Below are positions 29,384 to 63,067 of a stretch of 64,000 nt of DNA, piece after piece; position 1 is the first letter of the stretch; each line of letters begins with the position of its first letter. The position numbers were made by a program, and so were the translations under genes. The stretch comes from Actinernus sp. WN-2022 (lineage: Eukaryota > Cnidaria > Anthozoa > Actiniaria > Actinernidae): contig JAOWCC010001501.1 in assembly GCA_030867875.1 (NCBI GenBank), positions 30,214,792 through 30,278,791 of the forward strand, in the 5' to 3' direction. The notes under the pieces were generated by a model, which was not told the DNA's origin, did not search any database, and saw only the letters and a program-made list of their open reading frames with translations.

Positions 29384-29409
29384 TATACATGTATAATCTT
29401 TTTATCTTT

Positions 29410-29470
29410 CTAAATAACTTCTAACACGATCTGCATTGGAAATATTTTAGAACTCATCATATTATGACTA
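29410..29470 (-). pseudogene. C-terminal end of split virus gene (copy B)
   Basis: On the minus strand these bases encode the last roughly 20 residues of the paralogue whose main part is at 57,547-58,126, ending PMQIVLEVI and TAG. The alignment to copy A (PMRIVLEIV) is clear. The 28-kb transposon lies between the two pieces. With one copy of the duplicated TA removed, the pieces add to 639 bases, a whole number of codons. Confidence 0.88.
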
Positions 29471-29479
29471 TACCCTTAC

Positions 29480-30425
29480 CAATTCCTGTGATATGGGCCA
29501 TATATGGCCCTTGTATGGGTTTGGTATGGGCCCATTTGATTGCCATATGTGGGTATGGTGTGGGAAGTGTATGGTTTATGTATGGGCCATATGATTCCCA
29601 TGTATGGGTGCAATGCTGTCTGATGTGCAATATTTTCAAACCCATACCATGTCCATATTTAGTCCATACTATTCCCATACAAAAGTATATGGAAAAAGTA
29701 TGGATTTGTCTAAAATCCAGATAGTTCCCATATATGGCCATATAGTTTCCATATATGGAGAATGTATGGGCAACAATGCATATTTGTAACATTTTTAGCA
29801 TGGGAAGCAAATGGGTTTTTGATGGGAATAATATGGGTGGCATATGGGATCTATATGGCAGTACTATGGTAATTACATGGGAACTCAAAAGGTTAAAAAA
29901 GTTGCATTTGTCCATGTGTTCCCCATACAGAAACCACACATTTGCCATGCTTATCCCATACTCAACCCATAGCTTATCCATACAAATGTAATAATCCCAT
30001 ATCATACCCATATCATTTACATACTCGACCCATACAATTTCCATTCCTTAACCAGACTAGTCCCATGGTATATCCATTCAATTTCCATACCTTACCCATT
30101 TATTTTCCATTCTTTTCCCATACTCCCCAAACATTTAACTGGCCATGTAATACCCATCCATTTCCCATACACTACCCCATATAATTTCCACACGTTCCCC
30201 ATACGCTCCCCAGAAGTTTCCCATATAATTTCCATACGTTCCCCAGACGCTCCCCATATAATTTCCATACGTTTCCCCAGGCGCTCCCCACAAGTTTCCC
30301 ATGTAATTTCCATACGTTCCCCATACGTTTCCCATACCTGCCACAATTTCTATAAGTTTCCCAGGCGCTCCCCATACGTTTACCAGGCGCTCCACATACG
30401 TTTCCCAGGCGCTCCCCATACGTTT
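29480..30425. repeat. Left subterminal array of TATGGG/CCCATA words
   Basis: Dozens of TATGGG (29,480-29,880, plus strand) switching to CCCATA (29,900-30,425), often as CATATGGG, spaced a few to about 25 bases apart. It mirrors the array at the right end of the transposon. ORFs rich in MGNVW or PYPHM are translations of the repeats. I infer binding sites for the element's own DNA-binding protein. Confidence 0.85.
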
Positions 30426-30812
30426 CCCATGCCTGCTACATAATTTCTACGAGTTTCCCATACGTTCCCCAGGCACGCCCCATACGTTTCCCAGGCACGC
30501 CCCATACGTTTCCCAGGCACGCCCCATACGTTTCCCAGGCACGCCCCATACGTTTCCCAGGCACGCCCCATACGTTTCCCAGGCACGCCCCATACGTTTC
30601 CCAGGCACGCCCCATACGTTTCCCAGGCACGCCCCATACGTTTCCCAGGCACGCCCCATACGTTTCCCATGCACGCCCCATACGTTTCCCATGCACGCCC
30701 AATACGTTTCCCATGCACGCCCCATACGTTTCCCATGCACGCCCCATACGTTTCCCATGCACGCCCCATACGTTTCCCATGCACGCCCCATACGTTTCCC
30801 ATGCACGCCCCA
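30426..30812. repeat. 22-bp minisatellite
   Basis: About 17 tandem copies of a 22-base unit with core CATACGTTTCCCAGGCACG. The last roughly seven copies have CATGCACG in place of CAGGCACG. It is the inner, recently homogenised extension of the subterminal array. 22 is not a multiple of 3, so all three minus frames stay open with the same repeating peptide in shifted order. It is not a gene. Confidence 0.92.
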
Positions 30813-30849
30813 TATTCCTTTGGTGTACAGCAGTTACACACCCCTAGAT

Positions 30850-33162
30850 ATATCTATGTAGATATATATGAAACATCCAAACCAGTCTGTTTCCATGTAC
30901 TCACTTTTAATTATTTCATATTATGGATCATACATTCATGTAAACATTTGCATAACATAATATATATATATATATATATTTGAAATATATATTTGAAAAT
31001 ACAAATATTAGAAAATTGTTACACCCCTCAGCTTTTCAGTGCCCTAAATTCTATAAAGCCTCACTATATAGGTATCACCAATTAGGTATATTTTCCTTTC
31101 AGGTTTAAACTCATTAGCAACTAATGGACTTAAATTTTAAATAATTAAAAATATAATATCAATTCAAACTTTATGTAATGCAAATTCAAATATAAAAACT
31201 GTTGCCAACAATATTTTTGTGCTAAATTAACAAATGTACATTTCACTCTCCCCCAGAAATGAAAACCAGTTTTCTGCCAATATTTTTCTCTAGCTAAATA
31301 GCTTCTTTTTGCACCTCAAGATATTTCTTTCTTGAACTCTTGGTATAGGTGGTTGATGTGTGTCTGAAACTGATTTCCTCTACGTAAACATGCAATAGTG
31401 TGCAATTATTCAAACATTCCTTTGTGGGTGTAACCATTTTCTAAGGCAATCAGACAACTGAACACTGTCACTTCTGGAATTTAGCATTCCTTGCTCTGAA
31501 CCCCAAACCCCATAAATTACTATCATTTATCGTCTACTAATACTTGTATGGAAATTGCCAAATAAAAGTAGATTTTTGAAATACTGGTATGAATAAAATT
31601 ATAAAAAAATGCATTAATACTTCCTTAAAATTGTATCATCACAATGTTTTTATAAACAATCCAATTAATATAAACTTATTTTCTAAACTACAATTTAAGT
31701 ATTAAAAATAATGTTCCAAATAATATCATTTCGTAATGTTATAAAAAAAATATTCTAGAATGTAATGCATAACATAGCTTTTTGCTTCCTGTCATTTTGT
31801 CACATATACGTACCACATCTTATCTGAAGCTCTTATTGTACAACCAAAATTTGAACATTTCCCTTTAAAATATTTCTATTTCCCCCATAATATAATGCCA
31901 CAATAAAATAAATTATTTCTCAAGCCAATTTAGTATGTTTTGAAGCAGTTTGCATTTTCCCCTTAGTTTTCCTCATTTAAACCTTTTCAGTAACTAAATT
32001 ATACAATTTTTATCTGAACTACATGTACAAAATGTATGTTCATTGCAGCACAACAAAGCTATTTACCTTATAAGCTGCACTAATAATGTGTTATGCAAAA
32101 TGCTATTATTCTTGATACATTGTATTTAAGTTATAGTATAATAATTATTTATAATACTAAAATATAAATACAAAAATACTAGATTTGAATTGCCTGAGCA
32201 TAGACAAATTAATCACTAGCAGTGCAAACACAGTACATTTGATGCAAAAACTAGTTAATCCAGTTCTCCTTTTCATTTTGGCATCTACATTATTAACTGC
32301 AGGTAATCATTACCATCGTTTGCATGAAAGCGTGAGCAAGTGAGACAAAAACCTGTTCTAACTGGGTATTGTAACACGATTCGTCATCAACCTTTCAAAG
32401 TTTGAAGGCGTGCTAGATGAACCTTTGCACTCAAAATACCAACTTATTCTCTTCCCATATCAATAATTCTCCAACCAACTCTACCACTTGATTTCTGAAG
32501 TCCCAAATTAAAGGCACATACACCTGGTTTGAAGTTACAGCTGTATTTGTTTACTGTGTTTATCATAAATATCCTCACCTTCAAACTTCAAACGTTTGAC
32601 GATGAATCAGGTTATGTTTGATACAGTTAGAACATGTTTTCATCTCGCGTATTTGCACTTAGATGCAAATGATGGTAGTGTCCAACATTTAATTGGCAAT
32701 TATAATACTGTGCTGCAGATGCATGTTATTTTGTTAGAATTTTCAAACATCACACATGCTAAATATTATTAATCATTAATTGAACTTGCATACTATAATA
32801 TTACCAATACTATATATATGTCAACTGTTAATACAACCAATTCAATAATTACATTGCAGTTCAGGCATAACACCAGTAAAAAAATTATGACATGTACATG
32901 TACCAATGTATTGCTTTTAAATGAACATGCAACTGAAAAAGTAAATTTGGTTTTTATGTAACTACTGTACAATATATGCACTTCTCATGCAATTTGGGAC
33001 AAATGTAATTCCGATGTCTTTTCAGAAAGCTCAAACTCCATTTGCCCTAACAGAGTGACACACAATAACAACAGTCTTTTAAAAAAAGTTTGAACTTCAT
33101 GAAATCCCAAATTGCATTCAAAACCATTTCATTACCTTTACAGATAGGTTTACTTAGTAACT
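30850..33162. other. Non-coding interior of transposon downstream of BEN gene
   Basis: AT-rich, no gene. Contains a (TA)n run at 30,960-30,980, the probable 3' UTR of the BEN-domain gene, and a degenerate inverted repeat at 32,311-32,679. Confidence 0.5.
32311..32679. repeat. Degenerate inverted repeat (old MITE)
   Basis: Words ACCATCGTTTGCAT, CTGTTCTAACTG and CAAAGTTTGAAGG on the left recur inverted on the right (ATGCAAATGATGGT, CAGTTAGAACATG, CCTTCAAACTTC). About 370 bp. Confidence 0.5.
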
Positions 33163-36100
33163 TTAATTACTAGCTTTTTTTCCAGCCACTGCTCGAACAC
33201 GTTTGGGCCGCCTGGCTTCAACACACTTTTGGTTGATCCTTCTGTTGAGGTCGGCTATGCTTGGTGATGGCTCAAAGCGGCTTTGAATCTTGGCTGTAAA
33301 AAAGGAAATCAAAATAATCTTAGTAGTACAAAATGGATATGTATTTATTATCAAAGTTACCATAAAACCTGGTTATAAGCTCCCCCCTGATATACAAATT
33401 TGCAGGCCCACCTCTTCTCTTTCCCTATCCTCACAAGATACTTTTTCATATGTGTACATGTATGTGCACATATTACTCAGCTGTACAGCATTCACGTAAT
33501 ATTTCTACATTTTGTTTTACTTTGGTGGAAAGAGATATGTAAAGTATCATGTACCATGCATGGCCATACGAAAACTTGATACTTACCAATAATGACTTGT
33601 GCTATGGTTTTGTTGAGGGCAGGATGTTTTCCATGTCCTCCCACATTTCCATTCCCCAGTTCCTCTTTGGTGAAAAACACCTGAACAATTGATGACAAGT
33701 AGTCTGCATACTTCCTGTTTGCAGCACAGAGCACTTTTTGGTGGACAAACCAAAAAACACCACTCCCTTCGATGACCTCCTTCATCTACAGGATTGTAAA
33801 TAAAACACATGAACATGACTTTAGATATTCTACATACATGTACATTGTAGGTACAAACAAACAAACATAACATATACATACTGTATATCTATATACTGTA
33901 CATGATACACATGTATACTATATAAACGGCATGTTCAGCTACGAGGATCCAACAGGATTCACAGCTAGTCTGTCCTTTGCCAGAAGTATATTATAAGTTG
34001 AATAGAAATAAAGCAAAGACACTGCCACTCATAACTGTTATTAACATATACAGTGTAGTTAAAAAAATGGAGAACATTTCAGCCTTTGTTCTTCTTCAAC
34101 TGCTGACTGCATGCTGCTGCTAGGATCTTGCCCTTGTGTTTTTGGATTTTTTATATGTATTTTAATCAACAGGAATGAGTTGCTTTATTTATATCCAACT
34201 TCTACATGTACATTATATTTGAAAAGAAATTCCAAACGTTTCCAGAAAAGGTGAATAGTTTTTTCTAACAGAATCAATTGAAATTGTGTGCTCAAGCTGA
34301 TTGGCTCATGGCTGTTTCTTTTCATACAGCCTGGCTAATCCCAAAGTTTTTCAATATTGACTTTACTTTACTTACACAAATGTACTCTAGCATTGAAGTA
34401 CCAAACTAATATGTATACTAATAAATTATAACCAAACTAATATAAATCATGTACTTCAATCTCAGGGAGAATTCGATTGACCATGCATATTTCAGAATAA
34501 GATTTAATGCATGTACATGTATAGTCTTTGGAACTCATGCATTAATGCATGGGCATTTTATACTTCCTAAGCTATTTGAACTCAAGTACCATACATGTAT
34601 ATATATCCACATATGGGCCATACATTTTGGGGGATAAAAACAAGGTTTAAAGTTGGGGATGCCAACATTATTTTTATCATGGAGCAACAAAACACTTGCC
34701 CCAGATCGACCCTCCTCAAAAATCCCAAGATGGTGGACCACAGATGTGGACTTATTGTGCATGCATGCATGTATAGTTCAGCCAGAAACCCTTCCTTTTA
34801 CTTCTGCTTTAAGGATTGTCAGCTTCCTTGAAAATGGTCTTAGTTAATGGAAGGAATAAAATAGGAATAATTCTAGAATAATTTAAGAACTGCAGACCAA
34901 AATACAGTGGAACCCCACTACACATACATACATACATACATACATGTAACAAACCAGGTTATACATTTATCAAAGTCCCCCATAATTACAAGTACATGTA
35001 CCACAAAGATGTTTTCAGCACTGCAAAAACGTTTTGCTGGAAAAGTGTTATATATATATAATTATATATATAATAATTATTGGGGAGTCATTTATTATAT
35101 TTAATGAATCCTTGATACATGTATAATGAACCTAATTTCCCATCCCTTGGCACATATTATAACAGGGTTCCACTGTATACACAACAAATGATAAAGTTGT
35201 GATAGCACCTAGTTCACATAACTTGGAATGAAGCAAAACTTCTTCATAGATTGTTCTAAGTTGAAGCAATTTTAGGAACCAAATACAAGGCTCTAAGTTT
35301 GGGGTGAGTCCTACTACATGTATACTCAGGTGCAGCCTAATATGTGTTCAGTAATACTATGACCCATTGGGTTGTGTTTTGTCCAAGAGTTAAAATAGAA
35401 ACTTGTATAGAACAGTTGAACATTATAATTTGTTGTACTACACATCATACCTGGTAGAGTTGTGCCAACTTTGGGTCCACAATGCCAGCTCTAGGCTTGA
35501 GTTCCTCAACTTCAGTCGATGTGTTAGCACTTACTGAAATCCAAGAGAGTGGTATAGAACACATCTTACTTTTGTGAAGTTTTCACTCCTACATTGTACA
35601 TCCATTTGAGCTATTCTTCCTCGTTTTGAAAGCATTTCAAATGATATCAATCACTGGGTCATACATTTACATGTATTTATACTCTAAAACAAAACTAGCT
35701 AGTATACTTAAGCTGCTGTCACTTCATTGGCAACATGTACTGCATGTACTGTATATAAACTGTATATATATATATATGTAATTGAATTATTATGAAAATA
35801 TATGTAATGGAATTATTAGTATTAGCTACAGTATACTTGCATGCACCTAGAAGTACATTTATGTCAAAAAAGATTATCCCACAAGCTGTTAAGCTGAATG
35901 TCGGGGGGGGGGGGGGGGGGTCAAATACTGTATTACTAGTATCATGATTTTTCAAATTACAATGTAGTTTACCTGTTGTGCAGCTGGACATTTCAGTTAA
36001 AACCACAATCCATTTTAGTCTGGGCTCAGGCTAATGATTTTGATAAGTATAATGTTGGACATTTTTAGAAATATTTGAAACTACTAAAATGGTCAGTAAA

Positions 36101-39100
36101 GTCATGAAATCTTACCTGTGTTTTGAGAACTTGTTCCTTTTCATGATAATTTTTCGTTTGAGGCAATCCTACATGTATTTATAACAGGTATTATTTCATG
36201 ACTTTATTGACCATTTTAATACAGTTTCATATTTTTCTAAAATCTCCCATACAGTATGCCCCCAAAAAGGCTAGACAATTTTTGTACAGCTTCTTGATCG
36301 TCCAGTTATAAAACAATACAACCATTGTTTTGAGAAACTTACATGCCACTTCCAGCTTCGTTTCTAGGTTTCTAATCTTCCTGCGAAGTGCTTCACAGAT
36401 CTGTCTCAAATGTTGGTTAGACATTTGAGACAGATCTTCATCCCAATCTTCCACTTCACTGTCACTGTCTAAAGCATCTTCAGCTTTACGCTTAGACATA
36501 CCTGGGAAAAAAAGACAAGGATAAATCAAATTTATGGCAACTATAGTGACTGAAAATAACTTTAGCCAAAATTATTCAGTTGCTCAGAATTTTCTAATAA
36601 TAGTTTTCTGTTGCCAATTTTACCTTATAACATTAAATTAGTTTGACAGTAAAAAATATGAAGCATGGGACCTTTAATTTCAATGCTTGTAATTACAGTA
36701 TGGTGATTAAGCAACCAAGAAACAGTGGAGAAGTGAAGTAAAGATTTAGAAAAGTTGTTGACAACAGTATTAAGTGAGCTGGCATTGAACCACATGGTTG
36801 TAATTTTGAGCCCCAAGCCTCGGAAAGAAACAGTCTACAACATATTACATGCATACTTACTGGCATGTCGGTGCACAGAATCTCGATCAGTCTCATCTGG
36901 AATGTTACATGTAGGTTCCTGATCTGCTAAGAAAATTACCATAAATGCTTTACAATGTATTTGCTCTTGCTAGAACATTTCTCAAAAGGAAAAGCTTTAA
37001 TAATGTACATATACCTCTCTATACATGTACATGTATAATATACAGATTCATATTTTTTAAATAAGTCATTTGTACCATGTTGTTTCTCCATGCATGCATG
37101 TAAATTCGTCCCCTGTGAGCAGTTTCAAATTCACCAATAGGCCTTTTGCAGAAAACAGTCACATGCTGATATACATGTAATACTTTGTTTAACAAATGAA
37201 TTGAGCTCATGATCCCCATGGGAAGGGGCGGACTTCACCTCCTTGGAACCTGGAACAGTAGAAACAATACAAACCCAAACACTAAAACAATGGAATTCTT
37301 TGTCAGTGCAGTCCTAATGGCTCCAATAAAATGCAAGGTTTTGAGAGGTGAAGGCCTCCTGTATGGGAAAGGCATTGCCATGGGTGTTGGTGGCAAGCTA
37401 TCTTTAAAAACGCTGTTTTAGAAAGATTGACAATCGATTTGAGGTGGAAAATAGCATTTACAAACAGGTTTTGCTAATAACACTACCGATCTTGTACAAG
37501 TGCCTTTAAATATATGAATTAAGATTTTTTTTGCAACCCAGTACAACCATGTGATTGCATTCCTGCAAAAGGCACATTTGATATTAAAATAACTACAATG
37601 TACATGTATGTACTGGTACAATGTTGGGTGAATGTCATGTGCAACTGAAGTGATGTGTGCACAACAAAGGCATTTACAAGTGACTTTTGATCACATTCTA
37701 AATTCTCCCTTAGAAAACAAAGAATTTAGAATGTGATCAGGAGTCACTCATACCCATTTTGCAAACAGCCCTTCAATTTAAGAGTGATGATTGCTTACAG
37801 CTCAATGTTTTTTTTTGTGTGTATGCCACGCTGTTTGAAATTATATAACTGGATTACAAAAGATTTACACAACAAGCATAAATTGTTGTATTTTAATAAC
37901 CCATAACATTGGCTAATTAAATTCAAGGTACAATTAACACACTTCACCATTATGAATTGTGTATACAAATTGTGCTCTTACCAGTAATGCCTACATGTAG
38001 CTCTATTCTTCCCTGGATAGCTTGCAAGGCATTTCTCTTTTTTGCAGCCAGGGAATAATCATTGCCAGTACTATCTTGTTTGGCTTTTCCTTTCTCTGAA
38101 AAACAATAAAATAATGTTACATACATGTATATCATTATGCTGGTTTAAAGGACCCTAAAGTGCAACTTATACATGTAGATAAAGTTATGAACATTGATAA
38201 TCTGGTGAACAAAGGACAATGAGCCTATCGGGTAAGACTACCTAATGTACATGTATCATATACATGTATACAGTGTAGCTAATGGTCCAAATGAGAGTGA
38301 CTTTCTATGATTGACCAAAATCAGGGCACCTGGTCAAGAAATTGTTAATAGACAGTGTATTACCGGTATATTCTACACTAAATGTTACGTGCATGCATGC
38401 TGGTTCTTAGGTAGCAAGCACATTGGCTGGTTTTGGTTTAGTTTTACAGTTAGTTTGTGAGAACACACTCAACAGTAAAATACATGTACATGTACGTATT
38501 ATGAATTTGTTTAAACAAAATATAATAAGTATGGGCTCTCGTGAGTATATCTAGTTGTCAATAGTAGACAAACCAAAACAATGGAAATAGTGTCTATTAT
38601 AGTGAGTAACAACCTAGTAATTGTTTCACATACAGTTAATTCGCTACATATACATGTACAGTTATTTTTTGTCACTGGAAATGTACTCCAGAGAAATGTG
38701 GCAGAAAACATGGGTCAACATTATTGCCCCACCAAAAATACATCCTTGTAGAAATAATCCTACAAACTGTGCAAATTCAGCTGTCCAAAATTGCAAAATA
38801 AACAATTGCTACATTAGTCTATTCCTGTGAAACAGTTACTAGATTATTACACACTATTGCTTAAATGTACATTTATGTATATATGTATACATGTAATTAT
38901 ATTATTTTAACTGATGAAAGCTGAATGACGAAAGTTTTTCAATATATGGAACTGTGAAAAGTTGCCAGTTGTAAGTTCAAGATTGTAAATTCTACATATA
39001 TATATACTGTGTACACACACATACTGTACAGTGAATTGCAAAAATTGTATGAAAGTTACTTCTTAACACTTATGAACATCATACATGTACCTTTACTTAG

Positions 39101-42100
39101 TTCCTTGGACACTGTTTGTGATTGTTTCTTGTTTTCTAGATGAGCAATATTATTCAGAATGATTAGCATAACAACATCAACAGCTCTGATGGTCAAAAGT
39201 CTTATGTACACGAGGGATATTCAGGGGTTTCAATAGAAGGCGGCTACTGGCGATAAACCTCTGGTTACTTTGCTTCTTACCACTGGCTACTTCACACAAT
39301 AATTGTGTTTTTTTGTTAAGTGCTGAGTAATGTTTACTAGGTAAACCACCGCCTCTAACGACATGACCGCCAGTTGCCTAAAAGGTTATTGAAATGCCTG
39401 GATATCGATGCACTGGCCAGTAGTAACACACATTGATAGCCCTTTTGAGATGGACTTTGCACTGTATGTACACATGTACATCATACAATTGCAAATAAAA
39501 TAGTCCCTTTCAACAATTCACTACCTGCACGCCCCTATACAATGTACATGTAGCTACATTTGTAGCTAGGTGGGTACATTGTAAATTAAGGCAGATCTAA
39601 CAGATTAGAAACCTCTTCATGTAGCTCAGCAACAGGGTTTACTTTGTGTTTACTTTGCATACACACAAGTGTACATGTAAATGCAAACAAAAAAGTACAT
39701 GCAAATTAAAGTACACACCTAAAGTAAATGCAAGTAAACGCAAGGCAAATGATTGATATTTATCTAAAGAAATACCACAAGCCAAAGACAGTCTGCTCGA
39801 GGTAGTTACACCTCCTGTAAGCAATCACTTTGTCTGTGCACCAAGGGTGGTCACTTAAGAGAGAGTTGACTGTATTTACAATAGTAAATGCAAAGTAAAC
39901 ATAGGATTAAGAGTGCATGCAAAGTAAATGCAGGGTTTGCTTTGTGTTTACTTTGCATGTATTTTGTGTGCACGCAAAGTATTAAATGCAAGCGTGAGGT
40001 TAGTTTCGATCGGAACTCATGTACGTGTAGTAAGGTATTGACCATTATCCAAGCTAATGCAAGATGTTAGATGGCCTCTGCAGCTGCAAAACATATAACT
40101 TTTTGCAACTGCTTACCAAGGATTCATAAATATTCTTGACTTGTGGTACATTAGTTGTGACAGTCCCCCTTAACAATTTACAAACTCTCTACAGTATCTG
40201 TTATCATACATGTACAGCATACCTTTGCTTAGTTCCAGCTTCGACTTTGCTTGTAATTCTTTCTTGTTTTCTAGAAGTATTAGCATAACAAAACAAACAT
40301 ACATGTAATAAACATTAAAAGCCCTGATTAAAGGCATTAGTGTATAAACATTGATATATAATTAGCCATTTAATATGTATTTGCACTATACTGTATTAAT
40401 ATACAATCATGTACATTTGTAAAAAAGATTGCCCCTGTATAAGTAAAAGCCCAATGGGAAAGTTTAGTTACATGTAAGTACACTAGTGACCCTTATCAGT
40501 CCCATTCCTACAACCCACTTTCCCAATCACTTTGCACAATGCTGAAGACTATCGACCCAGCTAAATAAAAGGCTTCAACACTGACATGATTGGGAAAGTG
40601 GCCTATTAATTTACATTCTGGCTAATGCAATAAGATGTTGGATGGACCTCTTCAATTGTAAACATACCACTTTTGGCGATCACTAAAGCTTCGCAAATTT
40701 CCTTATGTGGAAGGGTAGCTGTGATATAGTCCCCCTCTTCAATTGCCCGCTCTTCACCATCATCTTCAATTGCATCACCAGACACAATGAAGTATTTTGA
40801 TCTTGGTTCAACATACACAAGATAATACATTGCTATAAATAATAGTAGAAAATACAATGAGCAAAGAGAATATCTCTGTACAATATTATTATAGAATACC
40901 CTGCATGTCAAAAGATCACTTAAAAACTGTGCCAAATTCTCCATTATAGTGCATGTGTACATGTTATGTAGTCATATGAATGACTTTTGGTTGAAAATGG
41001 TTAGGTTTTTTTATTTCAGGGTTAGGTCTTTAGAAGGTTTGTATGAAAATTTGAGAAAATGAATTATTATTGATGTAACTTGTGGGGTATTCTATAATAA
41101 TTATTCCAATGTCTCATCTACATGTAATCCCAGATGTTACAAACAGTATGCACCTATCAACATGAACCCTATGGAGTAAGTGTGGGCATATCCAAGTTAA
41201 GAATCTTGCAAAATCTTGCCAATATTCTCAACCTGGGCAGAGTGGGAATTTAATTGACAGAATACCTTATCCCCACAGTCTAACATTTGACTGTGAATCA
41301 TTGGCCAGAGTCAATAAGACATTTAAAAGACTTTGAGGGAGTGGGCACAATCTTTGATTCAGTCACAGCATTGTGCTTCATAGCCCTGCAAGTGATCCCA
41401 CTCAGTCAAAGAAACAAAACATTTATTTTAAAAACACCCTGTGTTATATTCTCTGGTAAATCGGTGTTCTCATTCAGATAATTTAGAGTTACAAATAATT
41501 GAAGCCATATAATATAACTTATTAATTAATATTCCTGTGCTTGAGCTTGCTCTTTTGATAGATGCTTTCGATTTCTAGCTGCCACAAAGTCTAACTGTCA
41601 TTAAATAGACTTTTTGTCCTGGGGTGGTATACATGTACATTTGATTAACATGTTTCCCCACCCTCTGGAATTTGAAATTATATATATTTTTTTGTCTGCA
41701 CTCCACCCATTCTCCTCTGCAGGCTTTACATTTATATTGATAGGTGCATTATGTCGAACTCTCACCTCTTACATATGTTATAATACCTCGGGGAGCCAGA
41801 GTGGCAAAGTGGTTAAGTGCTTTGCCTCTCACCTCTTTGGCCCAGGTTCGATCCCTGCATGGACACAGTGCCATATGTGAGTGAAGTATCTCACCCTTGC
41901 TCTGAGGGTTTTTCTCAGGGTCCACCAGTTCCTCCCTCCACAACAAAACAACATGCTAAATTCCAATTTGATCTGTGGATTAGCCAGGTCCTCCAGGCTT
42001 TAATCAGACCCTTGGTTGTTTCAGGTCTCATTAGAAATTCAGATCTTTTTTACCTTCAGAGCCCAAACACACATCAGTTTAGATTTCGGTTATGGCAAAT

Positions 42101-43135: not shown

Positions 43136-43384
43136 TGTAGCTTCAGATGAAACAGGCGAGCACCAAAGCGAAAGAAGGAAGAATCGAGGATAGACTTTTA
43201 AAAATAACTGAACATGCAACGTTTCGAAAGAACTTCGAATGACCCGCCTTTGCAACGTTGAAATCTAATATACTTCGAGTCACGAGACTGGAGTTACATT
43301 GTTCCCAGTCTACCTCTGTCAAACAGTGATGCATTGCGCGCACAAACATCCCGCGCAAACGGCGGGAAGCCGAAGAGGATCAGG
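43136..43384. promoter_or_regulatory. Bidirectional promoter of the transposon
   Basis: 249 bases separate the two divergent start codons. The stretch is less AT-rich than the introns and lacks repeats. Both 5' UTRs must start here, unless undetected upstream exons exist. I see no clear TATA box. Shared control of transposase and DNA-binding partner is the natural reading. Confidence 0.55.
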
Positions 43385-44900: not shown

Positions 44901-44936
<36 letters not shown>

Positions 44937-47900: not shown

Positions 47901-50900
47901 GGTAGGTTGTGTACATACATTTGTATTGCCATTGGTGCATGCATACATCTACATGTACATGTATGTTGTATTTCAAATTTCATATGTTCACTTTTTTTAA
48001 CCATTTTATCATAAAAATTGAAATCTTGTTATTTTCATACAAAATCACTACATTGAATCCACACATGGATTTTTTGCAGCAAGTTTTAATGTGTAACTAT
48101 TTTCCAGACCGGAGCTAGGAACAGAAATGAAACACACTTCTGTCTCAGTTGTCTGTTTTTAAGAACCAAGGCCTAAATTATGGGGGGTTGTCAAATGCTA
48201 CATATATCAAAATGATTTGCAGTAATCACTAGATACACTGTATGCTTATTTCTGTTGTGGTGGTCTAATTTTAATGGACATACAAATGTATTGGTATACA
48301 TGTACATTCCACCATGTGACTTACCTCACCAATTTCTATACCAGACTTGCAGATTGCATCCGATTCTACATTGCAATTCATTTCCAGAATATATAGGGAA
48401 TTTTGGTGTACTAAAAGTAAATCCACCCTCTCCCTTTGTTTTCCTACTTCCCCCTTATCACTTCTTGTCCCTACCCCTCACCCTCTCTCCTTACAGTGCT
48501 AACCATATTTACTGTACCTTCCACTGTCATTACTGGCAGAGCCTTACAACCACTGTGCCACATAATTGATTGATGTAAAGCATCATACATGTACTCATAT
48601 GTACTATATTAAATATAATTATGAAAGTGTCTACTAGTACCCAATCCTCCATAATCTAGTCTAAATTTGCATACATGTATGTGCAGTATAATCTTATTAT
48701 AGGATGAATTTCACTTACATGTAACACTGCTCAAAAATTGATGACACAAACCCAGTACACCATTGTTGCTGTTTGTCTCACTATAGGAACGGCTCGCCAG
48801 CAGCAAGTTGGAACAAGTAGAAATTTGACTTGTGACTCATTAGTGGATGTTACATTGTACGTTACTCGCGAGTGGTACTGTACAGGACTTGAAATAAAAA
48901 AGTTTATAATACATTAGCTGATAAATTTCGACTACCTGTATGTGTAGTTACAAAAATTGGTTCCAAGTTAACAATTTTTAGTTTCTAAAGCATAATCCAG
49001 TGGCCTTACAACCAAAATCTGCAGCAACAATACATGTACATGTATATAAAAAAAGACCACATTAAAATGACATCTCATGCGTTCAGCTACTAACATTTAC
49101 TGGCTGCTCAATGTACATGTACAATAATATTGTTTTTGCTTAGGTAAATGGCTTTAAAGGAGTGTCTGTTCTAGCTGGACTACCTTCATTTGATGTAGTC
49201 AATGGAATTATTGTGGATTACATGCATGGTGTCTGTTTGGGAGTAGTGAAAGCTTTCCTTTGTTTGTGGGTTAACTCTGAAGCAAGGAAAGAAGCATTTT
49301 ATATTGGCAACAAGGTTAAAAACATTGACAAGAGGCTTCTCTCAATTAAGACTACCAGCAATATCAGCAGGACCCCAAGAAGCATTGAGACACACAGGGC
49401 TTACTGGAAAGGTAAAGATAATGTTAGTTATTTAAAAATCATTATTAATGCTACATGTGTGTAACTTGCGAATAACCTTGAATGAAAGAATGGAAAAAAG
49501 TAATGTACAATAACCTTGAATGAAAGAATGGAAAAAAATAATGTACAATGTACGTTCTACATTGCACAAAGTATTGTTGTAACTATCCAACATAACGTAT
49601 TGCTGTAGCTAAAATAATCCATTGTAGATATTTCTGTTGTTTGAAACTGGAGAATGTGCCTTAATTGTTGTGGATTTTGACAATATGGGCATATGATTTT
49701 ACTGAAAACTGACATACAGGTACAATTCAAAAATAAAACAAGATATCACAGGTACATGTACATAATTGTGTAGCTACATGTATATTGTTTGGAGGAGTAA
49801 GTGCAGGGAGGAACTGACACATACCCTGACCCGGGTGGGTCGTGATTTAAGGTGCACAGGTCTTCACATGGTCAAGTTTGAGTTGCTCATTCGCAGTGCT
49901 GAAATACTGTAGTTAAATCAACTTTTAATGCATATATTTTAAAAAGCAGGGTTTGAAAGTAACTTTTTCATAAAGGTGCCAACTGGTGACTAAAGCAAGA
50001 ATTTTGGTCAGATTGCCCAAACAAACACAAGGTTAAATCCTCTATCACTTTATTTGTGCTTTCTGTATCACCTCTTACATCGTGTCAACGAACCTTTAAA
50101 TAGATCTAAAGAATTTGCATACATATTCAACACTGATAGTTTGCCCATGCTAATTTGTGTGTACATGTACCACTTTTGGAGATTTCGCTGAATCAAAATG
50201 GCACTCACGCATCTCTATTGGGAGAAACTGCAAAAAAAAATGGTGCCCAGTAAACATGATGATCAAGAACTAAAAACTATGTTTGGTGCACTTACATGTA
50301 CGTGTATTTGTAGGAACCTGGTTTCAGGGTGAGTTCCTATTATACAATACAATGTAGGTTTTCCTTAGAAGTAGGAAAAGCATAAGGTTAAAAGGTAAGT
50401 CACCAGCTGGCAACTAGTTCTGAAATTTTGGTCAATTTCAAGTAAAATTTTTTTTGCATTGGTGACCAGTTGGTCCCAATTTTGAGCCCTGCAAAGAATA
50501 TCTTAAAGCTGGTTTCAGTCCAAATGTGTTTTTCATTTGACTGTACCTTTAAAATATAATTTGAACACTTTTTTTTTCAGCTTCTGAGTTTCGCAATTGG
50601 TTGCTATTTTACTCAGTACCTTGCTTGAAGGGTATTCTACCAACATTGTTTCTGGACCACTGGATCCTCATCGTGAAAGGAATTTGGCTTCTCCTGAAGA
50701 CGTCTGTTTCCCCATATGATTTGGAAACAGCCGAATCATTGCTCTTGAGGTTTTGTGTGCTGGTCTCACCATTGTATGGTATGTTACATGTACTGATTAA
50801 AATACTACAATATATGTATTGTGGTTCAATTTTATATTTGGTTTAATTTTATTAAACTGGTTTAATTTTCAAGATAGTAAGCACAGTCTTATGATCACTG

Positions 50901-53900
50901 ATGTTATAGTTTATATTGAAAAAGGATTGTTGTCTGCATTGTTTAGTGACTTGCTCTATAAACACCCTAAGTGAGCACCTGTTGTGGATGGTTGGGGTGT
51001 TTTTTAATGTAGGGTTTGTATTAGTTCACAGGAACATTGAAGAACCATGATGTGTCTCTGTTGTTCAGTGAGCTTAGCCCTAAAAATCTTAAATTAGTGA
51101 CAAGCTCTAAACACCCTAAATTAGCGAGCACTCATTGTGGATTGTTAGGGTGTTTTAAGATGTACATGTAGGGGTAGAGTTTGGATTACAGTCCCGCTCT
51201 TTGCAACCACCACTAAACGCCGGACGGCACTAACAGCTGTTGGTGGCGTTAGTGCCACCAAACCACTAGATGGCATGAACCATAGGTGGCTAGCCACCAA
51301 AACTTCTGGGCAACCAACGGCTAGCCACCAAAACTTCTGAGCCACCAACATTTTGTGAGGGGTGGGTGAATTTGTTTTCTTTTTAAATCCCCCCCCCCCC
51401 CCAAAAAAAGAAAACTAAACTGAACACCCTTATTTATGAATACCAAAAAATTGAAATATCCCTTTTTAGAATCTTGATTATTAAACCAGTTTAAAATATA
51501 TATAAAACCAGTTTGGAAAAAAAATAGTTAAAAAATAATTAAACCAAGTAACAAAATGAAACCAGAACATAATATTGTGTTACATGTATTTGCTATCCTT
51601 TTTTTTTTAAAGAAATAAATGTAAGAGTATTCTACATTTGTTTTAAATTTCTGTATTATTTTGAAATGGTTGGAAATGGTGCAACATATTTTTGTGTTTG
51701 CAGTGACATCATATTGTGATTCAATCAAAAGGCAGCAAGTTCATAAGTTTGTGTTTGTGTGTTCTGATTTCCATAAAAAAAGAAATTCTGAAAATTGAAT
51801 CATTCATTACTTAACAGGTGAAAGATACCAAGGAATCAATGTTCACAACCTTCTTCATTTGGGGAATACTGTAAGGAAACATGGACCATTGTGGGCAAAC
51901 AGCATGTTTGTATTTGAAGATTGGAATGGAGAAATCACCCGACTCATTCATGGGACCCAAAATGTTGAGACCCAGGTATATTCAATATACACTAGCTGTA
52001 CCTGTGAATCCTTGAAATAATGAAAACATGCAAAAATGCTTGCACTAATACCTGTACATGTATGTGCTTTAAACTGTATTTTCTATAAATTCTAATGATT
52101 GGGCAAATCAAGGAACTGATCAAAAACCAGACACGACAAATGGGGAAAAATTAGTGTTTTAATAAATTCCTATGATTTCACATACAAATTAAAGTGGTTG
52201 CTACACAGGTACATGTACATGTATAAGGAAAAAACCTTAAAAGGTGCTACTGGTAAATATTAATTGAACCAGCTGCTTAGTTTAGCTTGAAGCAGTGATA
52301 CATCTACCTTTGCCTCCTAGCTGTGTCTCTGATGCATTAAATTCCCCCAAAGTGCAAAGACAAGTTGTAACATCCCTTCCTAATATTAGAATTCTTTTAC
52401 TGAGGTATGCTTAGCTTTACATATAATTTGGCTAGTTTTCTCCTGAAATAATCACATTCAAATTCAATATTGGAACGCGAAATCAGAAAAAAATGATTCA
52501 CTGTGTCACTACTGTGTATTTACGGAACAGGTGGGCAGCAGTCACTGTGACAAAAACAAGATTTAAATTTCTAGATGGATCACTGTATGTTGAAGTATTG
52601 TTTAAAACATTTGTCACATGATTCTATGGCATATGGTGTTTTTGTTATACTAAATGGATTATTCAACCATCAGTTTCTTTATCACTATTACAGGATAATT
52701 TAAAGTACTATTTATAAAACAAGCCGGCTGTGTTATACCGGCGAGGATCTACATGTATATCTCTGGTACAACACAACTCAAATTTTATAAAATATTTCTC
52801 AAATTTCTAGATGTAGAGTCATGTTGTTCAGTTATTTTGGCTGCGAAAATCAAAGTTAAAGTTTATGTAAATGAGACCAGTACTGATACATGTACATGTA
52901 CATGTATCACATTATTTTATAAACATTCATTTCATTTGTTTTGTTTTTTCGGCATTTATTATTGAGTTTTAGAAGTAATGTTTCAAGGCCAATTGAACTT
53001 TTGAATCTTCACAGATAACAACAGCAATCTCCCATCGCCAGAATGTGTCTGTGTTAGCACGTGGGCTGCAGGATGGTACAGATGCCAAAGCCTTCTATGA
53101 AAAAATGGCTGATAGAGGGAGATCTCCGTGAGTATTTGTTTTTAATATTACCCTTTTCTGTAAAAGATTGATTTAAGGGCTATTTTATAGGAGGCATCAA
53201 GTACATGTACATGTAGTTATCTTGGTGTCATTAATGTACTGTACCTGAGCTGCCATACCCTGAGTGACCAAGTTATTTTTCAAGCATGCAGCTCTCAAAA
53301 TCAAAATTTGAACAAATGGACAGGAAACAACAATAGAGAGGAAGCTATATATACCAGAGTGAAAAAAGTCTTGTTTAAGTAGCCCAGGGCTAGTGGAATT
53401 TTGCTCTTGGGTTTTTTTCTTGCATTTTTAGTTTGAGAGTAATGAAATAGAAATTGAAATACATTATAATAACACATGTCAAATCATGTGAGTCCTGTAA
53501 TTGGCAACATTGTCTCAATTACCGTAAAGACCTGTAGATAAGCCGCAGCCGTAGATAAGCTGCACCCCAAGTTTTGAAGCTTGAATTTAGGAAAAAAACT
53601 TTTTTTGAGAAATACAAAAAAATATTTAGAAAATCTTTTGTTGGAGTTCATAAACGCTCGTACTTGAAGCAAAACTTCATCAGATTGTCATAAATACATA
53701 ATCACAACTTTAATTCAATCGAATAAATCGAATATGCCGGGAATATGGTTACAACTTGCCTTGTCATTTCTTGTGTATATTTTAACCTGCAGTCTTTAAA
53801 TCACTCCAGAATTCTTCGGCTATTATTCCCCATTAACTAACAACAATTCCAAGGAACCGCTTTCCTTTAATCGCTAGAACAAGAAAGGTTTTCTGGTGAG

Positions 53901-55345
53901 ACTATACTTGCATGAGTAGGTCTGAGGTCCGCCATCTTGGATTTTCATTAACTAGTGCCAATCTCTCACGTGTAAAATTGTGAAGAATGTCTGGTTGTTT
54001 AGATGCATGCTTTGACAAGCGCTTCGAATCAGCGTGTTTTGGAAGGTAAATAAGCTTAATCACGTTAAAATATTCATGAAATTCTAATATATTAGGTCTA
54101 AGGTTAGTCTTAGAAGAGATTTTGCTTTAATTCTTTCAAATTGCGTGTTTTTGTTTCAATGATTATGCTTAAATTGCTATATAATATTACATGATTGCAT
54201 GCGATTTGAACCTGATTGTACTATATGTACCGTCGCATAATAAAAGCTTCATACAGGTTCATGATATGTAAATATATGTTAATGTTGGGTCTCCTTTCTA
54301 GGTGTTCCCGTAGATAAGCCACACCCCCGAATTTGAACGAAAATTTTGGGTAAAAAGGTGCGGCTTATACACAGGTCTTTACGGTAGTCTAATACATGTA
54401 TGAAATTTATTTAAATCCCTCCATGTCAGGGTTTTCAATAACATTTGAAGTAAGTGGCAAAACTTGAAGAGTAGGCGGCGAGCATCGAGCGCCATTGGCG
54501 CAAATATCTAATTTCTGGGGAATTTTTCAATCAAAGAAGGCGGTGATTTCATGTAAAATACCTGGCGAGATTTGCCGGCTGCCGGCTTCTATTGAAAACC
54601 CTGCATGTAAGTATGGGCTAATGATTAATAGAAAGTACATGTACAGTACAATTATGACTTCTCATTGATGTTCAGGGGGGGGGGGGGGAGGGAAATAAAA
54701 ACAAATTACAGGAAATCTCCCCCCTCTTTCTTGTACATCTACATACCCCAGTTCCAGCTTGAGCAAAGGGTCAATTAATTTCTTTTCACCTGCTTACATG
54801 TACATGTGTTTATAAAATCTATTTTAAACATTGTTTACAGGAACAAGAAACAGTTGATTGATGAGAGAATGGCAGTTTTAGGAGCCTTAAGTGGAAGTAT
54901 TAATTTGGAGTACAAAGACATAATTCTGGAAAGTGTTGAAGGAATTACCAGCATCTCCCAGGTTAGAACATTTTCAAGGTTGGAAATGAATGGAATTATC
55001 ATTCAGTCACAAAGCTACAAGCGGGTGAGCCGTAGAAATAACTTTACTGTTTCCTTCACTGACAAAGAACAGGAAAGATATTGTCATATAATTCAGTTTT
55101 TAAGCTGTTCTGACAGTTATTTTGCACTAATAAATGTATTAGAGGAGTGTAGCCATAAAATAACCACCACAGAACTGACAGACCAGAATGTAACTTTGGA
55201 TCATCTTATGCCAGTTTTGCCTCCAGAGAAAGATAAGGTCATCTTAATTAAAGTTAATGCACTCAAGGAATTGTGTATGTTCATACAGTTAACACAGTCA
55301 GAGTGTTATATTGGCAAATTTCCAAATTTAGAGGAAGGAGACTAA
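43385..55345 (+). CDS. TNP2/CACTA-type DDE transposase (9 exons, 924 aa)
   Basis: Exons: 43,385-44,279; 45,349-45,589; 47,176-47,288; 47,618-47,901; 49,144-49,411; 50,581-50,778; 51,818-51,975; 53,015-53,127; 54,841-55,345. All junctions are GT-AG with matching phases and the 2,775 coding bases are open. Exon 1 holds a basic N-terminus, an acidic Ser-rich region and a zinc-ribbon-like CGKC...CDVC (about 247-270). The catalytic region follows plant TNP2: LKINTDG (D352), SIWPVFFQINELP, IFDLPA (D440) then GCLYC, VDYMHGVCLG, and MFVFEDWNG (E700). I infer a DDE triad of these D, D and E, which would cut the TACCC ends. ATG 43,385 is the first in-frame ATG; the frame is open further upstream only from TTG. 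No break is visible. Confidence 0.88.
44791..45007 (-). mobile_element. tRNA-derived SINE in transposase intron 1
   Basis: On the minus strand it begins CGCCTCCCAGTTAGCTCAG (A box TAGCTCAGTGG) with a B box GGGTTCAAACCCC about 45 bases later, then an unrelated body, and ends in a (GTAA)n tail at 44,791-44,810. This head plus short-repeat tail is characteristic of a SINE. Confidence 0.8.
45724..46402. mobile_element. MULE-like MITE with 10-bp target duplication
   Basis: About 100-bp inverted ends beginning TAGCCTGAATTTCAGCC. The direct repeat GCGAGATATT is at 45,709-45,718 and 46,403-46,412; on the left five extra bases (ACCGG) separate it from the repeat end. It shares the TAGCCTG terminus with the MITE at 10,147-10,309. 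A (TA)n run sits at about 46,160. It lies in transposase intron 2. ORFs inside are fortuitous. Confidence 0.8.
49470..49550. repeat. Short tandem duplication
   Basis: A unit of about 38 bases (AATAACCTTGAATGAAAGAA then TGGAAAAAA and AATGTAC) occurs twice in a row in transposase intron 5. A recent slip event. Confidence 0.8.
53522..54384. mobile_element. DNA element with CCGTAAAGACCTGT ends and TA duplication
   Basis: Inverted CCGTAAAGACCTGTAGATAA and TTATACACAGGTCTTTACGG flanked by TA (53,520-53,521 and 54,385-54,386). AAGCCGCAGCC / GGTGCGGCTT follow inside. 863 bp without a transposase, so non-autonomous. The TA duplication fits Tc1/mariner-like insertion. It is nested in transposase intron 8. 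Confidence 0.75.
54427..54603. mobile_element. MITE with CAGGGTTTTCAATA ends
   Basis: Inverted CAGGGTTTTCAATA / TATTGAAAACCCTG, GGCGG and GCCGGC words inside, and CATGT directly repeated at both flanks (5 bp). Same family as 39,222-39,400; both sit in introns of this transposon's genes. Confidence 0.75.
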
Positions 55346-56319
55346 TACGTACATTGTAGTTACTACCATTTGCAAGCTACTGTTAAGTGTGAACCTTTTT
55401 CCATGTTCGTTTATGTTTGAAACTAAATGGCTGGCAGCCCAAACCTTTGCAATTCTGTCAAGTTTATGTTGAGAATGCATTAGTTCTGGGTTATAGTCAG
55501 TCCGGTTTACCATATGATTGTCAAATCGGTTTTTGCTGTGCATGCTTTGATTTCATTGAGGAATGGATTGCCAAGTGTGAGACCACTGTCTTGAGGCCAA
55601 TCTATTTTGCTCCAATCTAAACTTGACAGAATTTTGGCAGAGCCTTCCTTTCTCTTCTCTTTTAGATTGAAGGAAGAAGGCTCTGCTTGCAGGGTGAATA
55701 ATTGAACAAGTCGTGTTGATATAAAGGTTCCTGTATGTACATGTACAGTAGCTTAATTCCCAGGGCTCAGTGCACCAGCCATTGTGAACTCCCACTCCTG
55801 GATTGGATACCTGCATATTCAACTGCGATAGAGGTCAGAAAAAAATACTATTTTTGTAAGATATCTTGAACATTGCAACAACTAGGGAACCTAGTTAAAG
55901 GTAATGAATGAATAGTGTTAAGGAGGGGTAGTTACATTGACTGGTGCAAAAGTATCAAATTGACTTTAATTAATTATTGACTGATTTAAGCAAAACCGAT
56001 GCCCATGTCAATCAACAATTTTTTTTATTACTTTATTAACACAGATTTTGAGAAGCTATAGTTATTATTTGTTGATGAAGATAAGAATAAAATGTACATT
56101 CAATAGTTTCAAATTAGTGTCATGTATTGCCATTTGAATCTTTACTATACTCATGTGTATCATATTTGTGACTTGTTGGAAATCACATGACCATTCACTT
56201 GATCTCCATGTACAATGTACATGTAGGCCGATTAAGTTCAAATGCAAGGTTGATGTGCATACTGGATTCCTTAATGTATGTGTTCTATATGTACTAGAAT
56301 TAATGAAAATTGAAGTTTT
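55346..56319. other. Transposase 3' flank, non-coding
   Basis: Probable 3' UTR and spacer. A small hairpin (AGAGCCTTCC / GGAAGAAGGCTCT) lies at about 55,639-55,684. No further exon was recognised. Confidence 0.45.
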
Positions 56320-57534
56320 GTGCCCACATGTTTACCATGCATGAGTTGTCACCGAGTCTCATGCCCATGGCCATGTATCAAGCCATGCATCAAGCAGATG
56401 CTGGGAAATATTTTGTTTGCAATTAATTGCATCCCATCTTGTACCCATGTCTGCCATATACATGTACGTACATGTACATGTATCATGGGAATCGTGATAC
56501 ATGATGCTTGTAAATATATGGGTTGTTACATCTGTGTGATCACATTTGCCCATACAAATACCACCTTGTGCCCATGTCTTTACCATATCATGGGAATCAT
56601 ATGGGTTATTATCATGTCTACCCATACAATTCCCATATGTATGGATTTCATATGGGATTTGTACAAGCATTGAACCCTTTTTGCCCATGCATCTCCCATA
56701 TGCTTCCCATATATTTACCAGATGCTGGTAAATATATGGGTTGTTACATCTGTGTGATCACATTTGCCCATACAAATACCAACTTGTGCCCATGTCTTTA
56801 CCATATCATGGGAATCATATGGGTTATTATCATGTCTACCCATACAATTCCCATATGTATGGATTTCATATGGGATTTGTACAAGCATTGAACCCTTTTT
56901 GCCCATGCATCTCCCATATGCTTCCCATATATTTACCAGATGCTGGTAAATATATGGGTTGTTACATCTGTGTGATCACATTTGCCCATACAAATACCAA
57001 CTTGTGCCCATGTCTTTACCATATCATGGGAATCATATGGGTTATTATCATGTCTACCCATACAATTCCCATATGTATGGATTTCATATGGGATTTGAAC
57101 AAGCATTGAACCCTTTTTGCCCATACATCTCCCATATGCTTCCCATATATTTACCAGATGCTGGTAAATATATGGGTTGTTACATCTGTGTGATCACTTT
57201 TGCCCATACAAATACCACCTTGTGCCCATGTCTTTACCACATCATGGGAATCATATGGGTTATTGTCATGTGTACCCATAAATTTCCCATATGTATGGAT
57301 TTCGTATGGGATGTGCTTCCCATATGCTTTCCATATATGGGTTTCATATGGGATGTGCTGCCCATATATTTTCCATATGATATCATTTTAAACCCTTACT
57401 TTTCCCATATATGGTTTCTGAATGGTAAGTCTACCCATACTTATCCCATATACCAAAAACTCAAACCCATATTGGTTCCATACCAGACCCATATATATCC
57501 CATGTCATACCCATATAATCCCCATATGTTTGGT
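56320..57534. repeat. Right subterminal array: TATGGG words and 218-bp tandem repeat
   Basis: CATATGGG/CCCATATG words fill the region. Between about 56,510 and 57,300 a 218-base unit (TATATGGGTTGTTACATCTG start near 56,514, 56,732, 56,950 and 57,168) is repeated almost exactly. Nearest the end the words read CCCATA on the plus strand, mirroring TATGGG at the left end. Repeating ORFs on both strands are translations of the array. Confidence 0.9.
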
Positions 57535-57546
57535 TTGGTAAGGGTA

Positions 57547-58126
57547 TACCATCTGTTATCCACAATCGTATGCTATTAATGTAGTCAACTTCTCTAATTC
57601 TAATATTAAGAGAATTATTAGGATTATAGGATATCCTTTCTCCTTTTTTATTTAGTTCCAATGATGTTAAGATTTGTGAATGTTCAGTATCTTTTATGAC
57701 TTGTGTTGGATCAATGAGATCACAATGAATATATATAGCATCGATCTTCATAATCTGAAACTCATTTCGAGACCTTATTTTTAAATTCTTATTAATAGTA
57801 AGTAGTCTAGCTAGGCTCTCATTTAGTATGACATCGACTGTAGGAATAAAGTAGGCTTTACCATTTGAAATTTCTATACTGATTGGCTTTTCACCAATAG
57901 AAATAGCATCACTTATAGCAATCTTAAAACTTTCTATGGTGTAGTCTCCTTGAGGAATACGAAGTCTTACATTGCCTTGTGTATCGGAAACTATGCCTTC
58001 ACTCATAAGATCGTATAAATCATTAAAATTACAACTAATCAGTGAAATGTGCCTCCTAACTTGGATTGGGTTCTCGAGATATATAGTCTCATCACATTTT
58101 GTTTTTTCGATATATAATACTACCAT
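57547..58126 (-). pseudogene. Virus protein, copy B of paralogous pair, split by transposon
   Basis: Starts MVVLYIEKTKCDETIYLENP and aligns throughout with copy A at 28,730-29,383 (ISLISCNF, ESLARLLTINKN, IYIHCDLIDPTQVIK, RISYNPNNSLN, INSIRLWITD). It then runs into the transposon end right after the WITD motif. Its remaining roughly 20 codons are at 29,410-29,470. The apparent C-terminus of the ORF as it stands (rich in YGDYMG) is transposon subterminal sequence, not viral. With the element in place the protein would lose its conserved last strand. The promoter-like word TATAGTATAATGG overlaps the start codon. Confidence 0.88.
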
Positions 58127-58139
58127 TATACTATACGGT

Positions 58140-59075: not shown

Positions 59076-59104
59076 TTCTATATTTTATAATATGTAATAT
59101 CTTT

Positions 59105-59515: not shown

Positions 59516-59536
59516 ATTATATTATATATACATTCG

Positions 59537-59758: not shown

Positions 59759-59796
59759 GATACTTACGTATCTTACCATAGGTTTAAATCAATTCA

Positions 59797-60135: not shown

Positions 60136-60159
60136 ATTATAAATAATATGTTTTAATGT

Positions 60160-60675: not shown

Positions 60676-60698
60676 ATATTATAATTGTCAACTATCGT

Positions 60699-61513: not shown

Positions 61514-61532
61514 ACATTATTTAAGAGGAGCC

Positions 61533-62393: not shown

Positions 62394-62407
62394 TATAATC
62401 ATATATG

Positions 62408-63049: not shown

Positions 63050-63067
63050 ATGTTAATACTCAATCTC

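What the first reader, a model, noticed from the sequence alone, without database searches (positions are those of the whole stretch)
29469..57548. 28-kb CACTA-like transposon inside an integrated virus gene, boundaries resolved to the base
Seen directly: 12-bp inverted ends TACCCTTACCAA, TA on both flanks, and a viral gene in two pieces whose parts align to an adjacent intact paralogue. If TA is the duplication, the pieces sum to 639 bases (213 codons); with the alternative TATA duplication the frame would fail. The terminal TACCC differs from the CACTA motif, and the size is very large. I infer a metazoan CMC-superfamily lineage with TA preference, caught parasitising a virus-derived locus.
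Basis: partly seen in the sequence, partly recalled or inferred. Interest (0 to 1): 0.92.

Follow-up and report, generated by a model that had tools for sequence, protein, structure and literature searches.

The report
Giant animal CACTA transposon in provirus
A 28-kb jumping gene of a known animal family sits inside a gene of an integrated virus; it is the only copy found in this genome assembly with a complete-looking transposase gene, while many shorter relatives share its ends.

Summary
A 28-kb DNA transposon interrupts one gene of an integrated virus; 39 of 39 other scored copies of that virus are uninterrupted, and the 9 read at the site carry one TA there. But other copies end at CCC...GGG: the family's inverted repeat is 10 bp, with 2-bp duplications that can be TA, AA or CA. 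The window copy thus has two extra TA pairs. A CCC core and 2-bp duplications are published features of animal CACTA-related (TRC) elements. The element encodes an apparently intact 9-exon, 924-aa transposase with DDE, C(2)C and H(3)H motifs and, head to head, a 421-aa protein with a sub-threshold BEN match. Its ends carry CCATA motifs, many 11 bp apart. In the 1.39-Gb assembly the last transposase exon was found only here; three other copies of exon 1 are broken. Eight 8-9.7-kb copies read throughout contain neither gene. It is an unusually large variant of a known kind; the role of the BEN-like protein and the carriage of TA pairs are inference.

The parts
29473..57544 (+). Transposon by the family boundary (CCC...GGG), 28,072 bp; the unit inserted here relative to the empty site is 29471-57546 (28,076 bp) plus a 2-bp TA duplication
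29473..29482 (+). 5' terminal inverted repeat CCCTTACCAA
57535..57544 (-). 3' terminal inverted repeat CCCTTACCAA (reverse strand)
29469..29472 (.). TATA at the left junction: outer TA = target duplication, inner TA = extra pair not shared by the family
57545..57548 (.). TATA at the right junction: inner TA = extra pair, outer TA = target duplication
29473..30900 (+). Left subterminal array of CCATA/TATGG motifs, many 11 bp apart, including a 22-bp tandem array at 30352-30814
56420..57544 (+). Right subterminal array, same motifs, many 11 bp apart, including 3.7 copies of a 218-bp unit
43385..55345 (+). Transposase gene, 9 exons (43385-44279, 45349-45589, 47176-47288, 47618-47901, 49144-49411, 50581-50778, 51818-51975, 53015-53127, 54841-55345), 924 aa, introns GT-AG, no internal stop
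   Evidence: model; relatives; catalytic residues; Pfam Transposase_21 E 1.3e-9
33163..43135 (-). Second gene, divergent, 8 exons (43135-42973, 42564-42313, 40832-40668, 38095-37982, 36501-36343, 35533-35451, 33785-33587, 33293-33163), 421 aa, C-terminal BEN-like domain
   Evidence: model; BEN E 0.0011, 19.5 bits, below the curated 23.2
43136..43384 (.). 249 bp between the two start codons: candidate shared divergent promoter (inference)
45709..46412 (.). Nested MITE-like insert in transposase intron 2: 92-nt inverted arms, GCGAGATATT on both sides
57549..58126 (-). Upstream piece of the interrupted viral gene
29410..29468 (-). Downstream piece of the interrupted viral gene
28730..29383 (-). 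Intact tandem paralogue of the interrupted viral gene, 217 aa
23489..29468 (.). Left part of the provirus (TFIIB-like gene 25023-25985; 528-aa protein 26486-28072 with 1266 relatives)
57549..63907 (-). Right part of the provirus, running towards the window edge (Bro-N protein 61533-62402; A32-type packaging ATPase 62408-63049)

Best explanation
This is a large autonomous animal CACTA/EnSpm (TRC-type) cut-and-paste transposon that inserted at a TA dinucleotide inside one gene of one copy of a multi-copy endogenous DNA virus. Shown by sequence: the boundaries, the TA duplication against natural empty sites, the intact-looking transposase with the CMC-clade catalytic motifs, and abundant copies that share its two ends, eight of which were read throughout and contain neither gene. 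Inferred: the transposase cuts at the CCC ends and trans-mobilises the short copies. The BEN-like protein is the counterpart of plant TNPA: it binds the CCATA arrays, whose spacing puts many motifs on one face of the helix, and brings the ends together. In this jump the unit took along the two TA pairs that flanked it at its donor site, so that inserting into a TA left TATA on both sides.
For: Transposase relatives: 379 proteins with E <= 0.001 among 7994 scored candidates, 120 listed, best 6.8e-132 at 43% identity; the listed hits that bear an organism name come from animals such as Ptychodera, Acropora, Dreissena, Clytia, Pecten, Lingula, Gadus. D352, D440, C459, C462, H676, H680 and E700 are kept in 117-121 of 121 aligned sequences (the element and the 120 listed), the rest being gaps. 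Pfam Transposase_21 above its cut-off. Empty sites: 9 of 9 read, 39 of 39 by spacing. 2-bp duplications: 11 of 11 copies read at both ends, of 23 tried. Only the window copy has the last transposase exon (1 match of 1 candidate); exon 1 has 4 matches, of which the three others carry a stop, lose the start of the frame, or are shifted and truncated. Those three stretches also encode BEN-gene exons next to exon 1, so the head-to-head layout is not unique to the window. Subterminal CCATA/TATGG pairs 11 bp apart: 20 in 29471-30345 and 11 in 57120-57546, against means of 0.04 and 0.03 in 1000 dinucleotide shuffles and 1.21 and 0.82 in 2000 random placements; no such pair in 31000-56400 although 43 motifs lie there.
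Against: The BEN match is below Pfam's cut-off, finds no solved structure, and the exon that bears most of it has just one other copy in the genome, so its role is not shown. The 11-bp pitch may in part be the by-product of tandem amplification. No expression, excision or transposition was measured. Carriage of donor TA pairs rests on this single insertion; none of the 11 other copies read has TATA on both sides. The two guesses at where a second 28-kb copy's 5' end would lie (L009, L010) did not find one.
Confidence: 0.9

Rival explanations
1. The provirus copy had TATATA at the site before the insertion; the transposon is CCC...GGG with an ordinary 2-bp TA duplication and carried nothing along.
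For: All 11 other copies read at both ends have exactly this structure: CCC...GGG with a 2-bp duplication.
Against: 9 of 9 sister proviruses read at the site have a single TA, and four extra bases would have shifted the viral frame; with a single TA the two pieces stay in frame with the paralogue.
Confidence: 0.15
2. A separate subfamily with true TACCC...GGGTA ends and strict TA targeting.
For: At this one site the inserted unit is exactly TACCC...GGGTA plus TA.
Against: The copies closest to the window's 3' end (L002, L003; 97.7% over 387 bp and 100% over 207 bp) are followed by CAGT and TGCA, not TA; their 5' ends were not read.
Confidence: 0.1
3. Not one transposon but an assembly join, or unrelated DNA between chance inverted repeats.
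For: The 12-bp repeat alone is weakly significant in 64 kb.
Against: No N in the window, empty sites in sister copies, both ends recur in many other copies, and a complete-looking transposase and matching arrays lie between them.
Confidence: 0.01
4. The element is inert: a formerly autonomous copy with an undetected defect, and the short copies were moved by a source now lost.
For: Other exon-1 copies are broken; only one copy carries the last exon; a nested MITE-like insert lies in an intron.
Against: The open reading frame, splice sites, catalytic residues and both ends are intact by sequence. The provirus copy it sits in is young (closest sisters 98% identical over 578 bases), which bounds the age of the insertion if it came after integration.
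Confidence: 0.3

Closest known systems
Animal TRC elements of the CACTA superfamily (SmTRC1 and the Tribolium and Aedes elements; DeMarco et al. 2006, PMC1636069, abstract and passages seen)
   Same: CCC core at the ends, 2-bp direct repeats at the flanks (7 of 14 SmTRC1 copies there), Transposase_21 domain, GT-AG introns
   Different: Those are about 4.7-9.2 kb; this one is 28 kb, has a divergent second gene with a BEN-like domain (not mentioned in the passages seen) and long subterminal arrays
ESTA, fungal EnSpm-like elements with TA duplications (PMC12730594, abstract and passages seen)
   Same: [quoted passage not shown] TA duplication at this site
   Different: Here duplications of AA and CA also occur, and the closest transposases with organism names are animal; no tree with ESTA was made
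Enlarged En/Spm families of the red alga Chondrus crispus, 16-20 kb with 4-5 ORFs (cited in PMC6431247, passage seen)
   Same: Enlarged CACTA elements
   Different: 28 kb here, with two genes found; much of the size lies in introns, a nested insert and repeat arrays rather than in many ORFs
Plant En/Spm with TNPD and TNPA (recalled, from no call)
   Same: Catalytic transposase plus a second protein, and multiple short subterminal motifs
   Different: The second protein here is a BEN-like candidate with no tested binding

Membership tests
[quoted passage not shown]
   D352, D440, C459/C462, H676/H680, E700; kept in 117-121 of 121 aligned sequences
CMC/CMCT transposons (CACTA-Mirage-Chapaev-Transib) | Transposase_21-type domain | tested here: met
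   Pfam PF02992 E 1.3e-9, 38.0 bits against a cut-off of 28.6
CMC/CMCT transposons (CACTA-Mirage-Chapaev-Transib) | Inverted ends and 2-5 bp duplication | tested here: met
   10-bp ends; 2-bp duplications in 11 of 11 copies read at both ends, of 23 tried; 8 of them picked with TA at the 3' side
CACTA proper (plant type) | Ends beginning CACTA (or CA..TG) | tested here: not met
   Ends begin CCC
Animal TRC group of the CACTA superfamily | CCC core | tested here: met
   for the definition; for the ends
Animal TRC group of the CACTA superfamily | 2-bp target duplication | tested here: met
Animal TRC group of the CACTA superfamily | Transposase grouping with TRC proteins in a tree | not tested
   Relatives with organism names are animal proteins by search; no tree with SmTRC1 was made
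ESTA (EnSpm-like, TA duplications) | Duplication is TA | tested here: not met
   AA, AA and CA at three copies of the family
BEN-domain proteins | Pfam BEN match above the curated score | tested here: inconclusive
   E 0.0011, 19.5 bits against 23.2, profile positions 6-76 of 76; no PDB match
Identified virus family for the provirus | Close match to a named virus lineage | tested here: inconclusive
   A32 ATPase and Bro-N domains; no IMG/VR relatives in four scans with three proteins; poor structure models and no fold match with E <= 0.001

The most novel reading that the evidence does not exclude
A single master element drives a genome-wide swarm: the window copy is the only one left with a complete transposase, and its BEN-like partner wraps helically phased CCATA arrays into a TNPA-like synaptic complex. 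Its transposase can cleave 2 bp outside the CCC ends, so the mobile unit carries donor TA pairs along and then reads as TACCC...GGGTA at the new site.
Probability: 0.25. Interest if true: 0.65.

Novelty: new variant of a known kind. Interest (0 to 1): 0.5.

Why it matters
It gives a rare complete picture of a giant animal CACTA element: both ends, natural empty sites, an intact-looking transposase, a candidate helper gene, and a swarm of short copies with the same ends, all in one genome. If the window copy is really the only source, removing it would directly test whether one master copy keeps the family moving. The divergent BEN-like gene and the 11-bp spacing of the end motifs suggest how animal CACTA elements may do what TNPA does in plants.

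Tried and rejected
Structure of the 528-aa viral protein: mean pLDDT 42, no use. Structure of the paralogue of the interrupted gene: mean pLDDT 55; its best fold match had E 1.4e-3 and none reached 0.001, with penton-like, adomavirus LO5 and uncharacterised viral proteins among the listed ones; not used. IMG/VR scans: four, with three viral proteins, found no relatives. Rfam at gathering threshold: nothing in the window. PDB sequence search for the BEN-like region and two viral proteins: nothing. A TATA (4-bp) duplication was rejected because the natural empty sites have one TA. TACCC as a family end was rejected because other copies do not share it. Literature: ten searches. 'BEN domain' with 'EnSpm' and 'transposon': 0 papers; with 'CACTA' and 'transposase': 1 paper, on lateral transfers in Lepidoptera, seen as a listing only; the 12 papers listed of 471 hold no 'BEN domain'. 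This covers open PubMed Central papers only. Of the papers used, I saw passages (PMC1636069, PMC12730594, PMC6431247, PMC10294476, PMC4455052), none in full; the last two gave nothing used here.
Full report
What was claimed.

The observation. The two ends are exact, and the motif has no other hit in the window with up to one mismatch. The upstream viral piece aligns to the intact paralogue through residue 197, and the downstream piece continues at residue 199 in the frame that a 2-bp duplication requires. The upstream piece of the viral gene finds 40 scored copies (of 217 candidates) with 88-100% identity. All 39 copies other than the window's have the tandem paralogue 85-88 bases after the gene: 88 in the 23 with at least 93% identity, and 85, 87 or 88 in the 16 more distant ones (counted). 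All nine sister loci fetched read a single TA at the insertion point (for eight, for L031). So the empty site is a natural fact, not a reconstruction.

The correction. The last 217 bp of the element find 40 scored copies (of 220 candidates). Of these, 15 (the window included) match through GGGTA, 7 through GGGT and 18 stop exactly at GGG. The ranking favours longer matches, so these shares do not measure a TA preference. The first 220 bp find 40 scored copies (of 262 candidates): 23 start exactly at CCC, 3 one base earlier, 11 (the window included) at TACCC, and 3 further in. The family's end is therefore CCC...GGG, 29473-57544, with a 10-bp inverted repeat. I tried to read both ends of 23 copies (18, 5) and succeeded with 11. 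Each has a 2-bp duplication: TA in eight (L011, L017, L018, L019, L021, L022, L024, L025, all with a 3' match reaching TA) and AA, AA, CA in three (L039/L040, L041/L042, L047/L048, picked because theirs did not). The twelve not read at both ends: L015 and L026 have damaged 5' ends; L012, L013, L014, L016, L020, L023, L027 and L028 have no complete 5' end in the stretch fetched; in the pairs L043/L044 and L045/L046 no 5' end was found. The copies nearest to the window at the 3' end, L002 and L003, are followed by CAGT and TGCA; two guesses at a 5' end 28 kb upstream of them (L009, L010) did not find one. Against an empty site with a single TA, the window copy thus has two TA pairs more than a standard insertion. 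The simplest reading is that the unit was cut 2 bp outside its CCC ends at a donor site with TA duplications and carried those pairs along; this is one case and an inference.

What the element encodes. On the plus strand a nine-exon model with GT-AG introns and no internal stop gives 924 aa. A search with residues 200-719 of a partial model gave 379 relatives with E <= 0.001 (7994 candidates scored), the best at 6.8e-132 and 43% identity; those among the 120 listed that bear an organism name are animal proteins. In an alignment of the element's protein with those 120, the residues D352, D440, C459, C462, H676, H680 and E700 are kept in 117-121 of 121, the rest being gaps. These are the DDE, C(2)C and H(3-4)H motifs shared by the CMCT clade (PMC12730594, passages); that they are the catalytic and zinc residues here is by alignment only. 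Pfam Transposase_21 is above its cut-off. On the minus strand, starting 249 bp away, an eight-exon model gives 421 aa; its C-terminus matches Pfam BEN over nearly the whole profile, but at 19.5 bits it stays below the cut-off of 23.2. The three other stretches with transposase exon 1 (L050, L051, L052) also give BEN-gene matches beside it, so the two genes travel together in at least those copies.

The ends. CCATA and TATGG motifs often lie 11 bp apart: 20 such pairs in 29471-30345 and 11 in 57120-57546, against means of 0.04 and 0.03 in 1000 dinucleotide shuffles and 1.21 and 0.82 in 2000 random placements of the same number of motifs. The interior (31000-56400) has 43 such motifs and no pair 11 bp apart. 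Tandem growth of short units may explain part of this pitch. The proposed function, binding by the BEN-like protein on one face of the helix, is inference by analogy with plant TNPA, which I recall and did not look up.

Copies. The 11 short copies read at both ends are 8.05-9.72 kb long. They or their neighbours in the fetched set share about 380 bp of the 5' end (82-84%) and 0.8-1 kb of the 3' end (about 80-82%) with the window element. Eight of them were read throughout; tblastn found neither the transposase nor the BEN-like protein in them, while the same search finds 9 and 8 exons in the window. The interiors of the other three were not fetched. Seven of these eight compared with the eighth, L017: the main collinear blocks are about 90-97% alike, with weaker matches of 81-85% between shifted repeats. 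Transposase exon 1 has four matches: the window's, one with a stop, one that lost the start of the frame, and one shifted and truncated. The last exon has one match, the window's. One BEN exon has two matches, the window's and one at 94% on another contig. So in this assembly the window copy is the only one found with the sequence of a complete transposase gene; the middle exons were not searched (did not complete), and a copy absent from the assembly cannot be excluded.

The virus. The flanks encode an A32-type ATPase, a Bro-N protein and a TFIIB-like protein, and a 528-aa protein with 1266 relatives, the 120 listed without names. The lineage stays open: no relatives in IMG/VR in four scans with three proteins and poor models. 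The interrupted gene is a tandem duplicate of unknown function with one relative in the protein collection.

Comparison. Animal TRC elements of the CACTA superfamily have a CCC core and 2-bp direct repeats at the flanks, the latter in 7 of 14 SmTRC1 copies there (PMC1636069, passages): both met. The plant CACTA end and a strict TA duplication (ESTA) are not met. Enlarged En/Spm elements reported in one passage are 16-20 kb (PMC6431247). The present one is larger and has a second gene for which my searches found no paper (open papers only). Hence: a new variant of a known kind.

Noticed in passing
23489-29468 and 57549-63907; sister copies: The endogenous virus is a multi-copy family (39 other scored copies, 88-98% alike over 578 bases) with the interrupted gene as a tandem duplicate; long reading frames follow each other closely in the window, so this copy may be young. 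Its lineage was not resolved.
   Followed up: partly
45709-46412: MITE-like insert in transposase intron 2 with 92-nt inverted arms and GCGAGATATT on both sides: a transposon inside the transposon inside the virus.
   Followed up: partly
17415-18452 and 20714-21570: Tandem arrays of a 177-bp and an 85-bp unit left of the provirus.
   Followed up: no
23311-23386: Short degenerate tandem repeat (about 24 bp) just outside the left end of the viral gene block; possible provirus border.
   Followed up: no
L026 and L015, 5' ends: Two short copies have damaged 5' ends (one lacks the inverted repeat, one has a degenerate one) although their 3' ends are intact.
   Followed up: no
G000:C942:4705653-4705850 (L054): A second copy of the BEN exon (94%) on a contig where the exon-1 search of the transposase gave no match; three BEN-gene matches lie in this locus.
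   Followed up: partly
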